A model generated the notes under the pieces. It was not told the origin of the DNA. It searched no databases and saw only the letters and a program-made list of their open reading frames with translations. The translations under genes and the position numbers were made by a program. Of a stretch of 64,000 nt of DNA, positions 19,022-24,955 are shown one piece after another. The stretch comes from Aromatoleum toluolicum (GTDB taxonomy: Bacteria; Pseudomonadota; Gammaproteobacteria; Burkholderiales; Rhodocyclaceae): positions 90,842-154,841 of the forward strand of contig NZ_WTVS01000004.1 in assembly GCF_012911005.2 (NCBI RefSeq). The letters run 5' to 3'. Numbering within the stretch: the stretch's first letter is position 1; each line of letters starts with the position of its first letter.

Positions 19022-20140
19022 TCAGTCCTGGTAGACGTATTTGGCGACCAGCAGTCGCTGGATCTGGTTTGTTCCTTCCCAGATCTGCGTGACCTTGGCG
19101 TCGCGCATCATGCGTTCGACCGGGTAATCCTTCATGTAACCGTATCCGCCATGAAGCTGGATGGCATCAGTTGTCACCGACATGGCCGTATCGGTGCAGA
19201 AGGTCTTCGCCATCGACGCAAAGCACCGCGCCCGATCGTCATTCGCGCCCGCAATGTCCACCGCGCGGTACAGGATCGACCGTGCGGCCTCCACCGCGAT
19301 GGCCATGTCGGCAACCATTCCTCGCACCATCTGGAAACGCGAAACCTTGCTCTTGAACTGGGTTCGTTCGGACGTGTAACGCACCGCTTCGTCCAGCGCC
19401 CCCTGTGCCAGCCCGAGCGCCTGCGCCGACACCAGCGGGCGCGTGTAGGTGAGCGTCTGCATCATGTACTCGTAGCCCTTGCCGGGGTCGCCGACGACGC
19501 GATCGTCCGGAATCAGGCAATCCTCGAGAAGGATGTCGGCGGTCGGACTGCCGCGCATGCCCATCTTTCGCTCGTGCCTGCCGATCGAGAATCCGGGGTC
19601 GTCACGATGCACCATGAAAACGCCGAATTGCTTTTCCGATATGCGCGCGAGAACTGCATACCAGTCGGACCACCCGACATTGGAAATGAAGCGCTTCTGC
19701 CCGTTGAGCAGCCATCCGTCACTAACGCGCTCGGCACGCGTCTTCAATCCCGGCAGGTCCGAGCCGCCCCCCGGCTCGGTCAGGCAAAAACTCGCTCCAC
19801 ACTGACCCGCGGCGACAGAAGGCACGATTTTCCGCTTCAAGGCGTCGCTGCCAAACCAGACCAGCGGGGTCAGCGCCGCCCACGGAATAAAGAGCACCAG
19901 GGCAGACGAGGCGCAAACGCGTGCGATCTCTTCGATTGCAATGACTTGCGAGAGCAAGTCGCCACTTCCACCGCCAAGCGCTTCCGGAAACGGCAGCCCG
20001 TTCAGCTCGAGCGCCTTGTAGGCGTCGATCGAAGCCACGGGAAAGCGGGCCTCATCATCCACCACGGCAGCGTGAGGCTTGATCGCCTCCTCCGCCAGTC
20101 GCCGAACCTGTTCGCGGAATTCTTCGTGAATGCTGGTCAT
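19022..20140 (-). CDS. Acyl-CoA dehydrogenase (short/medium-chain type)
   Basis: A 372-residue enzyme with FCLTEPGGGSDLPGLKT, LNGQKRFISNVGW, and the classic catalytic-Glu motif IWEGTNQIQRLLVAKYV at the C-terminus. Unlike the other four dehydrogenases here it keeps this MCAD/SCAD-type glutamate. It is the last gene of the reductase operon, downstream of the alpha-methylacyl-CoA racemase. The expected role is to desaturate the (S)-2-methylacyl-CoA made by the racemase. The second ATG is chosen because AGGAT then has 8-base spacing. Confidence 0.9.
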   Translation of the reverse strand: MTSIHEEFREQVRRLAEEAIKPHAAVVDDEARFPVASIDAYKALELNGLPFPEALGGGSGDLLSQVIAIEEIARVCASSALVLFIPWAALTPLVWFGSDALKRKIVPSVAAGQCGASFCLTEPGGGSDLPGLKTRAERVSDGWLLNGQKRFISNVGWSDWYAVLARISEKQFGVFMVHRDDPGFSIGRHERKMGMRGSPTADILLEDCLIPDDRVVGDPGKGYEYMMQTLTYTRPLVSAQALGLAQGALDEAVRYTSERTQFKSKVSRFQMVRGMVADMAIAVEAARSILYRAVDIAGANDDRARCFASMAKTFCTDTAMSVTTDAIQLHGGYGYMKDYPVERMMRDAKVTQIWEGTNQIQRLLVAKYVYQD

Positions 20141-20190
20141 TGTCATATCCTGTCAAAGATGCCTACCGTTGTAATCAAGCGGACAAGTCC

Positions 20191-21378
20191 TTACGCCTTG
20201 TTCAGCTTGATGACGCCGGACTCTCCCAACTTGCTGATCTGGTCTGGCGACAAGCCCCAGTCCGCCAGCGCCGGTTCCGTGTCCGCCCCCATGCGCGGCG
20301 GCGGACGGCGCAGTTCGGAACATGTGCGGCTGAATCGCGGTGCCGGCGCCGGATTGAGCACGCCGCCCACCTCCACGAATGCCTTGCGCGCGACGTTATG
20401 CGGATGTGTCACACACTCGTCCATCGTGAGGACGGGGGCGAAACAGGTGTCGGTGCCTTCGAGAAGCGAGCACCACTCGTCGCGAGTCCGAGTCTTGAAT
20501 ATCTCGGCGAAGCGCGCATGCATGTGCTCCCAGCTCGCGCGGTCGTTCTGCTCCGGCAGGTCGGCCGCATATCGGCCCTCTTCATCCGGCAGGTCGTCCG
20601 AATTCAATCCGACGTGTTCGAGGAGCGCTTCGTAGAACCTCGCCTCGACAGCCGCGATCGACACGTGATGCCCATCCTTTGTCTCATAGACATTGTAGAA
20701 AGGCGCTCCGCCGTCGATGATGTTGCTCCCGCGCTCGCCGGGCCACGCGCCCATCTGCTTCAGCGCATACTGCATCGTCATTAGGCTGGAAACCCCGTCA
20801 ACGATCGCGGCGTCGACCACCTGCCCCGCACCCGAGGTACGCGCTTCGATCACCGCGGCGAGGAGCCCCATCGCAAGGTAAAGCGCCCCGCCACCGAAAT
20901 CGCCGACGAGGTTCAGCGGAATCGTCGGCGGTGCACCCTTCTGGCCGATGGCATCGAGTGCGCCGGTGAGCGCAATGAAGTTGAGATCGTGGCCCGCAGC
21001 GCGGTTCAGCGGCCCGTCCTGGCCCCATCCCGTCATGCGTCCGAAGACCAGTCGCGGATTGCCACGCAGGCAATCCTCCGGCCCGAGCCCGAGCTTCTCC
21101 ATCACACCGGGCCGGAAGCCCTCAATCAGCATGTCGGCGCCCGAGATCAATTGCCGGACGGTGGCGAGACCTTGCGCGGATTTCAGGTCGATGGCGACCG
21201 AACGTTTGTTCCGGTTCAGAAGATCGAGCTTCGATGGAAAGTCGATGCCTCTGTCAGTCTCGACAAGGCGGTCGATTCGCAGGACGTCGGCGCCCATGTC
21301 CGCCAGCAACATGCCGCAAAAAGGTCCCGGCCCGATTCCGGCCATTTCAATAACGCGTATTCCGTGTAGCGGTCCCAT
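20191..21378 (-). CDS. Alpha-methylacyl-CoA racemase (CaiB/BaiF family)
   Basis: A 395-residue class III CoA-transferase-fold protein. The racemase catalytic pair of AMACR/MCR is seen: His130 in AAGHDLNFIALTGAL and Asp160 in NLVGDFGGGALYLA. The N-terminus reads GPGPFCGMLLADMGADVLRID and the middle RGSNIIDGGAPFYNVYET, both typical of AMACR rather than of CoA-transferases such as HadA or FldA. It interconverts (R)- and (S)-2-methylacyl-CoA, implying a methyl-branched substrate. Its place between the activator and the dehydrogenase supports a role in the same pathway. Confidence 0.87.
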   Translation of the reverse strand: MGPLHGIRVIEMAGIGPGPFCGMLLADMGADVLRIDRLVETDRGIDFPSKLDLLNRNKRSVAIDLKSAQGLATVRQLISGADMLIEGFRPGVMEKLGLGPEDCLRGNPRLVFGRMTGWGQDGPLNRAAGHDLNFIALTGALDAIGQKGAPPTIPLNLVGDFGGGALYLAMGLLAAVIEARTSGAGQVVDAAIVDGVSSLMTMQYALKQMGAWPGERGSNIIDGGAPFYNVYETKDGHHVSIAAVEARFYEALLEHVGLNSDDLPDEEGRYAADLPEQNDRASWEHMHARFAEIFKTRTRDEWCSLLEGTDTCFAPVLTMDECVTHPHNVARKAFVEVGGVLNPAPAPRFSRTCSELRRPPPRMGADTEPALADWGLSPDQISKLGESGVIKLNKA

Positions 21379-23754: not shown

Positions 23755-23785
23755 GTCTATTTCTCCGGATCTCGCTCGTTGGGGG

Positions 23786-24955
23786 TCAGGCTGCGACGGC
23801 TCTTGCAGCGCGCTGTACCTTGATCATCTCGACGAAGGACTCGACCTTCGTACGCACGTTTTCCATCGCCACGCCATCGTGCTCGGTCTCGATCATGAGG
23901 TGCGGCACCTCGTTGCGTTCGAAGGCTGCCTTGATGCGGGGATAGGCGAAGTAGTGCGGTTCGCAGAACTTGACCAGCAGGACCACCAGTCCTTGCGCAC
24001 CGCACCGATCCACGGCGCCAAGCAGCCATTCCTCCCAATCGACCTCCGGATCGATCCGGGTCGGACACGGGACGTTGTCGTTCTTGCGGATGTAGGCCGT
24101 CGCAAGGGCGACGATCGGGTCACCGATCCCCGCGTCTACATCGGTGGAAACATATCGATAGCCGGTGTAGAGGTCATCGTCGACGATCGTCGCGCCACAG
24201 TCCTCGATCAGATCGAGAATCTCGGGTCGCGGGGCGTGGCACAAGTGCCCCGACACGAAGATCGCCACCTCGTCCGAGCGGGGCGCCGTCGACGTCTTGA
24301 GGGAAGCGATCAGCTCGCGCAACAACGCGTTGTGCGTTTCCTTATCCATCACCATGCTCGACTTGACGATGTGCTGCATCTGCGAGGCACGGAGCTGAAT
24401 CTGACCCGTCCTGCGCATCTGGTACAGGTCACGGATCAGGCGACGGTTTTCGTTGAATACGCTGATGCTGTGACGCAGTGCCTCCTCGGTCACGACGACG
24501 CCGAGCACCTCTTCGAGGTCGGCGACGAGCTCACGCAAGGTCTTGACCGAGCTTTCGAGTGACCAGGGCTGGCGCAGGGAGGCGATCAACTGATGAAAAT
24601 GGATCGTGGTCTCCGGCCGCGAAATCCGGATCACGTCGGCGGCACTCAGCAACTGGACGCAGTGGTCGGTAAACATGATCGCATCAAGAAAGCCGAGCTG
24701 ATCCTCAGTGACCTGGTCCACGATGCTGCGGGTGTAGCCGCAGAAGAATGGGTACATCGCGCCGCCACCGCTCGTGATCGCGTCGGGCATTTCCTGGACG
24801 ATTACCGGCAAGGCGCCGGTGGCGTGAATGATCTCCGCCGGGAAATGCATCGGAAGAGTCCCCACCGCCTTGACGCCGCGCTCCTGCTTCCACGCCTTGA
24901 CGTGTTCGTAAGGCCGTTGCGCCGCTTGCGCAAATTTATCCAGAACCGTGTTCAT
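23786..24955 (-). CDS. Benzoyl-CoA reductase / 2-hydroxyacyl-CoA dehydratase-type subunit (BcrC-like)
   Basis: A 389-residue protein of the BcrC/HgdB family (BcrC is about 384). Conserved cysteines appear in PFFCGYTRSI (Cys72), FTDHCVQLL (Cys99) and VKFCEPHYFAYP (about 331). The start MHFPAEIIHATGALPV region near residue 36 is typical of the family. AGGAG lies 8 bases before the chosen ATG. It is the first gene of the five-gene operon, about 80 bp downstream of the tandem operators at 25034-25081. Confidence 0.82.
   Translation of the reverse strand: MNTVLDKFAQAAQRPYEHVKAWKQERGVKAVGTLPMHFPAEIIHATGALPVIVQEMPDAITSGGGAMYPFFCGYTRSIVDQVTEDQLGFLDAIMFTDHCVQLLSAADVIRISRPETTIHFHQLIASLRQPWSLESSVKTLRELVADLEEVLGVVVTEEALRHSISVFNENRRLIRDLYQMRRTGQIQLRASQMQHIVKSSMVMDKETHNALLRELIASLKTSTAPRSDEVAIFVSGHLCHAPRPEILDLIEDCGATIVDDDLYTGYRYVSTDVDAGIGDPIVALATAYIRKNDNVPCPTRIDPEVDWEEWLLGAVDRCGAQGLVVLLVKFCEPHYFAYPRIKAAFERNEVPHLMIETEHDGVAMENVRTKVESFVEMIKVQRAARAVAA

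What the first reader, a model, noticed from the sequence alone, without database searches (positions are those of the whole stretch)
19022..24955. Three-component BCR/2-hydroxyacyl-CoA dehydratase-like enzyme joined to an alpha-methylacyl-CoA racemase
Seen: two subunits of the BcrB/BcrC-HgdA/B type, a single activator ATPase with both cluster cysteines, then a racemase with AMACR His130/Asp160 and an acyl-CoA dehydrogenase, in one operon. Known: class I benzoyl-CoA reductases use two different ATPase subunits, dehydratases use one; had/fld operons in clostridia have a CaiB-family CoA-transferase at the place where this operon has a racemase. Inferred: a new variant that reduces or dehydrates a methyl-branched (perhaps alicyclic) CoA-ester, feeding epimer correction and desaturation. 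With the BadH/BadI-like ring cleavage module nearby, this could be an undescribed anaerobic route for terpenoid- or steroid-derived acids.
Basis: partly seen in the sequence, partly recalled or inferred. Interest (0 to 1): 0.8.

Follow-up and report, generated by a model that had tools for sequence, protein, structure and literature searches.

The report
Radical CoA enzyme for terpene acids
This bacterium carries five adjacent genes for a predicted ATP-driven iron-sulfur enzyme that forms its own branch of the benzoyl-CoA reductase family, turns up mostly in genera thought to be aerobes, and sits among genes that would likely break down plant terpenes, so it may add an unexpected radical step to that pathway.

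Summary
In detail: 19022-24955 (minus strand) encodes HadC-like, HadB-like and HadI-like proteins, an alpha-methylacyl-CoA racemase homologue and an acyl-CoA dehydrogenase. In trees with HadBC, Bacillota dehydratases, BcrBC, BzdNO and MbdNO the two large subunits form their own branch (SH-aLRT 99 and 100). It occurs in Aromatoleum and Azoarcus, but mostly in genera I know as aerobes (Rhodococcus, Nocardia, Gordonia, Novosphingobium, Paracoccus, Mesorhizobium). Its catalytic subunit has His73 and Gln157, seen in none of the compared dehydratases or reductases; 62 of 68 activators carry a C-terminal cysteine pair, absent from 19 activators checked outside the branch. The window shares many gene kinds with the monoterpene island of Castellaniella defragrans, which lists no such enzyme. 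In eight Nocardiaceae loci the module lies within 10 kb of a P450terp/P450tol-like P450. In 199 genomes of the Mesorhizobium family, the six with the module are exactly the six with one score band of BadI-like hydrolase. Best reading: a ketyl-radical enzyme acting on ring CoA esters of p-menthane acids; dehydration, dearomatisation and a C4 side-chain step remain open. 'Terpenoid' is supported, 'anaerobic' too narrow, 'steroid' unsupported.

The parts
23786..24955 (-). HadC/BcrC-like subunit (HGD-D); ORF extends to 25024
   Evidence: Pfam HGD-D 240 bits; C95, C122, C354 in 81 of 81 rows, C262 in 80, C320 in 79
22390..23754 (-). HadB/BzdO-like catalytic subunit (HGD-D)
   Evidence: Pfam 185 bits; Foldseek best hit HadB 3o3o_A, TMq 0.79; cluster cysteines C104, C152, C395 and E75 in 84 of 84
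21453..22361 (-). HadI/HgdC-type ATP activator with a C-terminal Cys-pair tail (CTPAC)
   Evidence: 222 bits to HadI 4eht; tail
20191..21378 (-). alpha-methylacyl-CoA racemase homologue
   Evidence: 388 bits to MCR 1x74; H130, D160 conserved
19022..20146 (-). acyl-CoA dehydrogenase (ACAD1); best NCBIfam models acryloyl-CoA reductase (340 bits) and cyclohexane-1-carbonyl-CoA dehydrogenase (327 bits), both below cut-off
18249..18953 (+). TetR-type regulator
17627..18181 (+). MarR-type regulator
16569..17366 (-). SDRa: SDR-fold protein without the YxxxK pair; relative of at least 45% identity in 58 of 77 loci with HadC and HadB
25372..26274 (+). SDRb: SDR resembling 2,4-dienoyl-CoA reductases (third-best NCBIfam hit; active-site motif read by eye)
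26307..27512 (+). acyl-CoA dehydrogenase ACAD2
8826..9596 (+). BadH/MrcD-like 2-hydroxycyclohexanecarboxyl-CoA dehydrogenase
   Evidence: TIGR03206 329 bits, cut-off 431
9589..10446 (+). BadI/MrcE-like 2-ketocyclohexanecarboxyl-CoA hydrolase
   Evidence: TIGR03210 405 bits, cut-off 468
10397..12031 (+). enoyl-CoA hydratase-like (position of MrcF)
3853..5931 (-). acetoacetate--CoA ligase
   Evidence: TIGR01217 746 bits, cut-off 521
39050..39964 (-). CitE/RipC-like CoA-ester lyase, below cut-offs
12884..14122 (+). acetyl-CoA hydrolase/transferase-like
6114..8774 (+). HMG-CoA-synthase-like protein with OB domain, and thiolase
374..2121 (-). electron transfer flavoprotein subunits
28584..35382 (-). 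MMPL, YCF48-like, DUF1329, DUF1302: likely transport set for hydrophobic substrates
   Evidence: same set beside the operon in Azoarcus KH32C
35700..39168 (-). acyl-CoA synthetase and acyl-CoA dehydrogenase (ACAD4)

Best explanation
The window encodes a predicted three-part ATP-driven iron-sulfur enzyme whose subunits form their own clade beside 2-hydroxyacyl-CoA dehydratases and benzoyl-CoA reductases and whose genes lie among many of the gene kinds of a known monoterpene island; it is predicted to act by a ketyl radical on the CoA ester of a p-menthane ring acid, likely removing a hydroxyl to give the ring double bond that the BadH/BadI-like enzymes would need. Shown: the genes, their clade, the conserved cluster cysteines, the linkage to BadI-like hydrolases, and P450 or AlkB-like neighbours in several carriers. 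Inferred: a ligase makes the C7-acid CoA ester; the HadI-type activator spends ATP to push one electron onto the 454/412-aa dimer; the thioester ketyl expels the alpha (ring C1) hydroxyl and the electron is recovered, so the step is redox-neutral; [quoted passage not shown] Also inferred: the racemase and ACAD1 reach the same product from substrates with hydrogen at C1, by epimerising and then dehydrogenating. Hydratase, BadH-like and BadI-like enzymes would then open the ring, and lyase, acetoacetate-CoA ligase and thiolase would finish the branched diacid.
For: Own clade: HadB tree SH-aLRT 99 with a stem of 1.87; HadC tree, 34 rows one side of a branch, support 100. Single HadI-type activator. 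Of the six BzdN double-cubane ligands (PMC11971306 passages) C36 and C263 align with P58 and Y286 and the other four with Cys, as in HadC (read by eye). The window shares with the C. defragrans monoterpene island (Table 1) BadH/BadI-like, citrate lyase, acetoacetyl-CoA synthetase, CoA-transferase, thiolase, ETF and transporter genes. In Azoarcus KH32C the operon is on the same plasmid, about 27 kb from the genes reported there as closest to MrcD/MrcE. A BadI-like hit of 393-418 bits is in 23 of 24 proteobacterial carriers searched. In 199 genomes of the Mesorhizobium family the HadB orthologue is in 6 and a 404-418-bit BadI-like hit in the same 6; five pairs are 11-15 kb apart, one about 187 kb on one contig (four of the six were known carriers). 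P450 with 681 bits to P450tol and 464 to P450terp, relatives of at least 80% identity in 8 of 80 loci; AlkB-like FA_desaturase-fold protein in 7 of 80. CYP108N12 and N14 between them hydroxylate C7 of p-cymene, limonene, alpha-terpineol and terpinen-4-ol (PMC11279926 passages). ACAD1 scores 327 bits to the cyclohexane-1-carbonyl-CoA dehydrogenase model. Only 2 of 80 loci hold a plausible 2[4Fe-4S]-type ferredoxin within the flanks, which fits catalytic rather than stoichiometric electron use.
Against: No substrate is shown. HadB S37 is Gly in 84 of 84, and H73 and Q157 are the module's own, so ordinary dehydratase chemistry is not assured (Gly also occurs in 2 of 14 Bacillota dehydratase-like rows). 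SDRa looks like a conjugate reductase, which a plain dehydration does not need. The racemase is in the flanks of only 33 of 77 HadC-HadB loci and of none of the seven AlkB-like loci, and ACAD1 relatives of 60% or more in 5 of 80, so the parallel-entry idea does not hold for every carrier. 1-hydroxy-p-menthan-7-oic acids are not known to me as common intermediates, and an anaerobe cannot easily oxidise C7 next to a C1-OH. C. defragrans grows on limonene, and its island names no such enzyme. MbdN, a true reductase subunit, also lacks the double-cubane cysteines. ACAD1's best model is acryloyl-CoA reductase, 340 bits. In Actinomycetota the BadI test cannot be separated from MenB background.
Confidence: 0.35

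Rival explanations
1. It is a dearomatising reductase for 4-isopropylbenzoyl-CoA (cumoyl-CoA) from p-cymene; SDRa and SDRb reduce the cyclic diene, and racemase plus ACAD1 adjust the ring before Mrc-type cleavage.
For: CYP108 members hydroxylate p-cymene. SDRa shares the missing YxxxK with AerF (6jh7, second-best PDB sequence hit; ring-reductase role of AerF recalled). SDRb resembles dienoyl-CoA reductases. A BaiCD-like flavoenzyme follows a related module (L109). The HadB Ser37 position is also not Ser in BcrB and MbdO.
Against: Single HadI-type activator; no plausible low-potential ferredoxin in the flanks of 78 of 80 loci; many carriers are thought to be aerobes, some with oxygenases in the same cluster; BzdO H131 is G155 in 84 of 84; cumoyl-CoA is achiral, yet five of six carriers in one family hold two or three HadB copies.
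Confidence: 0.22
2. It dehydrates 2-hydroxyisobutyryl-CoA, the expected C4 end product of 8-hydroxylated p-menthanes such as alpha-terpineol, to methacrylyl-CoA.
For: Canonical 2-hydroxyacyl-CoA chemistry; C. defragrans is proposed to end isopropenyl compounds at methacrylyl-CoA; P450terp is the second P450 match (464 bits).
Against: Neighbours are often upper-pathway genes; racemase, SDRa and ligase stay unexplained; an achiral C4 substrate does not need several paralogues; ACAD1 scores well to a ring dehydrogenase model.
Confidence: 0.15
3. The module serves another alicyclic or steroid-like acid, and its nearness to Mrc-type genes reflects shared ring-cleavage needs rather than monoterpenes.
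For: A Desulfallas locus has the subunits among beta-oxidation genes; its best BadI-like hit is only 268 bits and no related P450 was found in its flanks.
Against: Shared gene kinds with the C. defragrans island and nearness of a P450terp/P450tol-like P450 in eight loci.
Confidence: 0.18
4. It is an ordinary had/fld-type 2-hydroxyacid reduction operon with a CoA-transferase-family protein.
For: HadBC and HadI are the best PDB sequence hits; an acyl-CoA dehydrogenase is in the operon.
Against: Separate clade; far below HadB/HadC equivalog cut-offs (172 of 750, 163 of 700 bits); racemase, not transferase.
Confidence: 0.04

Closest known systems
(R)-2-hydroxyisocaproyl-CoA dehydratase HadBC/HadI (Clostridioides difficile)
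   Same: Subunit fold (TMq 0.79-0.80), single activator, three cluster cysteines, catalytic Glu (E55/E75)
   Different: 24% identity, separate clade, Ser37 replaced by Gly, own H73 and Q157, activator tail with Cys pair, racemase and Mrc-type context
Class I benzoyl-CoA reductases (BzdNO, MbdNO, BcrBC)
   Same: Superfamily, fold, cluster cysteines in the catalytic subunit
   Different: One activator instead of two different ATPase subunits; BzdO H131 absent; separate clade; BzdN double-cubane ligands C36 and C263 missing (also missing in MbdN)
Castellaniella defragrans 65Phen monoterpene island (mrc/ctm; PMC4109377)
   Same: BadH/BadI-like ring cleavage, citrate lyase, acetoacetyl-CoA synthetase, CoA-transferase, transporter set, ETF (by annotation)
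   Different: Its Table 1 (CDM25240-25302) names no dehydratase-type subunit, activase or racemase, though many rows are only 'hypothetical protein'
Second badKHI cluster of Aromatoleum petrolei ToN1 and A. aromaticum pCyN1, suggested for monoterpenes (Weiten et al. 2021, as cited in a passage of PMC9795900)
   Same: Genus and ring-cleavage genes
   Different: The passage names no dehydratase-like subunits
M. tuberculosis alpha-methylacyl-CoA racemase MCR (1x74)
   Same: 388 bits, catalytic His and Asp
   Different: Encoded beside a radical-type enzyme; substrate unknown

Membership tests
2-hydroxyacyl-CoA dehydratases (HAD) | Two HGD-D subunits plus one HadI/HgdC-type activator | tested here: met
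2-hydroxyacyl-CoA dehydratases (HAD) | Falls with characterised HadB/HadC in a tree or reaches their curated cut-offs | tested here: not met
2-hydroxyacyl-CoA dehydratases (HAD) | Active-site Ser (HadB S37; role recalled) | tested here: not met
   Gly in 84 of 84; the Ser is not strict in Bacillota rows either (9 Ser, 3 Ala, 2 Gly of 14)
2-hydroxyacyl-CoA dehydratases (HAD) | Dehydrates an (R)-2-hydroxyacyl-CoA | not testable with these tools
   needs enzyme assay
Class I benzoyl-CoA reductases | Two different ATPase subunits | tested here: not met
   one activator in the operon; the other six ATPases are paired elsewhere
Class I benzoyl-CoA reductases | Falls with BcrBC, BzdNO or MbdNO | tested here: not met
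Class I benzoyl-CoA reductases (BZD type) | Six Cys for the [8Fe-9S] cluster in the N subunit | tested here: not met
   C36 and C263 replaced by P58 and Y286
Class I benzoyl-CoA reductases | Reduces an aromatic CoA ester | not testable with these tools
   needs enzyme assay
Alpha-methylacyl-CoA racemases | Catalytic His and Asp; closer to MCR than to CoA-transferases | tested here: met
Mrc-type monoterpene ring-cleavage island | BadH/BadI-like pair, lyase, acetoacetyl-CoA ligase, transporter set | tested here: met
   (by gene kind; no C. defragrans sequence was compared)
Mrc-type monoterpene ring-cleavage island | Growth on cyclic monoterpenes | not testable with these tools
   no phenotype held

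The most novel reading that the evidence does not exclude
A third functional branch of the benzoyl-CoA reductase/dehydratase superfamily that works in oxygen-respiring bacteria, protected or redox-switched by a Cys-pair tail on its activator, and that performs a new ketyl-radical reaction on alicyclic terpene CoA esters together with an AerF-like SDR partner, linking oxygenase-made terpene acids to anaerobic-style ring cleavage.
Probability: 0.3. Interest if true: 0.9.

Novelty: new variant of a known kind. Interest (0 to 1): 0.7.

Why it matters
Enzymes of this superfamily are known as very oxygen-sensitive tools of strict or facultative anaerobes (recalled). A conserved branch in Rhodococcus, Nocardia, Gordonia and sphingomonads, in several loci encoded beside P450 or AlkB-like oxygenases, would mean that ATP-driven ketyl-radical chemistry is used during aerobic terpene or hydrocarbon breakdown. 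It gives a directly testable candidate for a step between terpene acids and ring cleavage, and a natural place to look for how such an enzyme might tolerate oxygen.

Tried and rejected
Rejected: that the operon completes a standard BCR with an ATPase elsewhere; that the fourth gene is a CoA-transferase; that the SDR beside the operon (SDRb) is BadH; radical-clock opening of a bicyclic terpene (considered, no evidence). Literature: the listings (open PMC library; several lists capped) showed no paper on a dehydratase-type enzyme in Rhodococcus or in terpene islands; (2-hydroxyglutaryl-CoA dehydratase with Rhodococcus, aerobic, racemase) gave 0 papers and one search gave 1 unrelated paper. Subscription journals are not covered. 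A length-greedy gene caller gave many antisense ORFs and was replaced by tblastn painting; its counts were redone with identity thresholds. The first HadB extraction took the wrong strand for minus matches and was redone. A genus-level control returned one genome and was redone at family level. No three-dimensional measurement was possible: model coordinates were not among the files listed.

Rows dropped or limits: the HadB tree used 73 of 113 rows; the residue table dropped the double-cubane row; one search took painted hits of at least 36% identity and 0.8-1.4 times the reference length; one search took at least 45% identity and more than 70% of the length (62 rows with the window). Flanks are 10 kb at most in the loci, so absence from a locus is not absence from the genome. 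In one search at most 12 candidates per genome were scored. The trees warn of long branches meeting, so relations between clades are unsure.

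
Full report
What is there. The window lies on contig C234 of a 6.16 Mb genome. The operon reads, in the direction of transcription, HadC-like, HadB-like, HadI-like activator, racemase, acyl-CoA dehydrogenase. A TetR and a MarR regulator and an unusual SDR (SDRa, 16569-17366) lie downstream; SDRb and a second acyl-CoA dehydrogenase are transcribed away on the other side.

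The enzyme is a separate branch. None of the five proteins reaches the cut-off of a specific NCBIfam equivalog model (HadB 172 of 750 bits, HadC 163 of 700, BcrC 175 of 421, BcrB 130 of 487); the activator passes only the general activase domain model. The best PDB sequence hits are HadBC and HadI of C. difficile; the predicted structure of the 454-aa subunit (mean pLDDT 85.5) matches HadB best (TMq 0.79-0.80), then MbdO and BzdO. In the HadB tree (73 rows) the module rows stand together with SH-aLRT 99 and a stem of 1.87; one Bacillota row that I had labelled a dehydratase (L129) falls inside. In the HadC tree (59 rows) 34 module rows are one side of a branch with support 100. BcrB/C, BzdO/N and MbdO form their own groups.

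Active site. In 84 module sequences C104, C152, C395 and E75 (HadB E55, BzdO E65, by counting) are invariant. At the HadB Ser37 position the module has Gly in 84 of 84; 14 Bacillota rows have 9 Ser, 3 Ala, 2 Gly. H73 is His in 84 of 84, where HadB has Tyr, Bacillota rows 11 Tyr, 2 Phe, 1 Leu, and BzdO, MbdO and BcrB Thr, Phe and Leu. Q157 (83 of 84) replaces a Lys present in all compared rows of the other groups. BzdO H131 (PMC11971306 passages) aligns with G155 (84 of 84). In the 412-aa subunit C95, C122 and C354 are in 81 of 81 rows, C262 in 80, C320 in 79. Two of the six BzdN double-cubane ligands are missing, as in HadC; MbdN lacks them too, so this does not separate dehydratase from reductase.

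The activator tail. Of 68 activators in the painted loci, 51 have C-x(2-3)-C past the ATPase domain, seven more have C-x(4)-C, and four whose domain end my pattern missed also show a pair: 62 of 68. The six without are L080 (Gordonia, one Cys) and five deep relatives: Desulfallas (one Cys), a Chloroflexi MAG, a Deltaproteobacteria MAG and two Archaeoglobi MAGs. Nineteen activators outside the branch (Bacillota dehydratases, BCRs, double-cubane type) and the Bacillota member L129 have none. The tails of the solved activators were not seen. A role in oxygen protection or redox switching is inference only.

Spread and neighbours. The genome-contig scan kept 77 loci. With three plasmid loci (KH32C, R. 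ruber MSA14, Sphingopyxis macrogoltabida) 80 were painted by tblastn. With identity thresholds, 77 loci hold HadC and HadB; of these SDRa (45% or more) is in 58, a ligase of either type (43% or more) in 59, the racemase (43% or more) in 33. HadI (45% or more) is in 65 of 80, an aldehyde dehydrogenase relative in 13, a Zn-alcohol dehydrogenase relative in 14, a protein with the FA_desaturase domain (AlkB-like by eye; L034 example) in 7, the BadI-like hydrolase (43% or more) in 14. Of 85 HadC-HadB blocks as painted, the racemase is the next painted gene within 900 bases in 29 (24 divergent, 5 downstream) and SDRa in 32 on the downstream side. The exact five-gene order of the window appears in L024, L101 and L026. 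SDRa keeps a nucleotide-binding start but lacks YxxxK: Met171 at the Lys position is invariant in 33 of 33 rows; AerF (6jh7) lacks it too in the printed alignment.

The island. The window also holds a BadH-like and a BadI-like protein below cut-off, an acetoacetate-CoA ligase over cut-off, a CitE/RipC-like lyase, a CoA-transferase, thiolases, ETF, and MMPL/YCF48/DUF1329/DUF1302. Many of the same kinds are in Table 1 of the C. defragrans monoterpene paper (PMC4109377; whole table seen, passages). That table names no dehydratase-type subunit, activase or racemase, with the reservation that many rows are hypothetical proteins; the words racemase and benzoyl-CoA do not occur in its text. In KH32C the operon and the genes reported as closest to MrcD and MrcE (85 and 88% identity) are on one plasmid, about 27 kb apart (old and new locus numbers matched by order). 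In R. ruber MSA14 one plasmid holds, within about 40 kb, a P450, 2Fe-2S protein, ferredoxin reductase, ADH, ALDH, HMG-CoA lyase, thiolase, CoA-transferase, a MenB-type protein (over the MenB cut-off, 281 bits to BadI), racemase, HadCBI, SDRa and ligase. A second badKHI cluster in two Aromatoleum strains has been suggested for monoterpenes (PMC9795900 passage).

Linkage test. TIGR03210 gives a match at E 1e-60 in 39 of 40 carrier genomes, but MenB also scores and six of 14 control genomes ring, so the useful part is the 23 of 24 proteobacterial carriers with a 393-418-bit hit. In 199 genomes of the family of Mesorhizobium sp. L-8-3 (Rhizobiaceae, name recalled) six have the HadB orthologue and 13 have BadI-like hits at E 1e-100; the six in the 404-418 band are exactly the six carriers, and the other seven genomes score 380-383 or 466-515 bits. 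Five of the six pairs are 11-15 kb apart, one about 187 kb apart. Four of the six were known carriers, two were new.

Upper pathway. The P450 of L062 scores 681 bits to P450tol and 464 to P450terp (the CYP108 name is recalled), with relatives of at least 80% identity in eight of 80 loci, all Nocardiaceae; seven of these also have alcohol and aldehyde dehydrogenase relatives above threshold. CYP108N12 hydroxylates p-cymene and limonene, and N14 also alpha-terpineol and terpinen-4-ol, at C7 (review PMC11279926, passages). The window genome has two P450 hits on another contig, and A. diolicum and KH32C have none, so a P450 is not part of the module in this genus.

Mechanism. I commit to a ketyl-radical, redox-neutral removal of an alpha hydroxyl on a ring CoA ester, giving the sp2 C1 that C. 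defragrans needs in its cyclic substrates, with racemase plus ACAD1 as a parallel entry where present. This is inference. The reasons are the single activator, the lack of a plausible low-potential ferredoxin in the flanks of 78 of 80 loci, ACAD1's score to a ring dehydrogenase model and several HadB copies per genome, which suit stereoisomers (five of six carriers in one family). Dearomatisation of cumoyl-CoA and dehydration of 2-hydroxyisobutyryl-CoA remain live.

Verdict. A real and unusual module: new variant of a known kind, interest 0.7.

Noticed in passing
L104:4781-6844 (own genome, contig C243): A 687-aa ORF joins an activase domain (235 bits) to a double-cubane-reductase-like domain (214 bits), beside a second activase and a further HGD-D protein.
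   Followed up: partly
own genome, contigs C227, C15 and C256 (L105, L106, L107, L138): Two separate bzdNO pairs, both far over cut-off, in one genome, plus an MBR-type pair whose O subunit is 97.5% identical to the solved MbdO of Thauera chlorobenzoica.
   Followed up: partly
16569-17366 and 58 of 77 related loci: SDRa, an SDR without YxxxK but with an invariant TPGE motif, is a frequent partner of the module; its reaction is unknown.
   Followed up: partly
L035 and L037: Two HadCB pairs in tandem without a HadI in the painted stretch.
   Followed up: partly
55421-59132: HipA-like gene and a TOTE conflict system primase/helicase at the far end of the window.
   Followed up: no
L108:17386-18555: Protein that looks by eye like ETF:ubiquinone oxidoreductase, just outside the window next to the ETF genes.
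   Followed up: no
L091 (Desulfallas sp. Bu1-1) and L129 (Bacillota): Deep members of the branch whose activators lack the Cys-pair tail; the Desulfallas set lies among beta-oxidation genes.
   Followed up: partly
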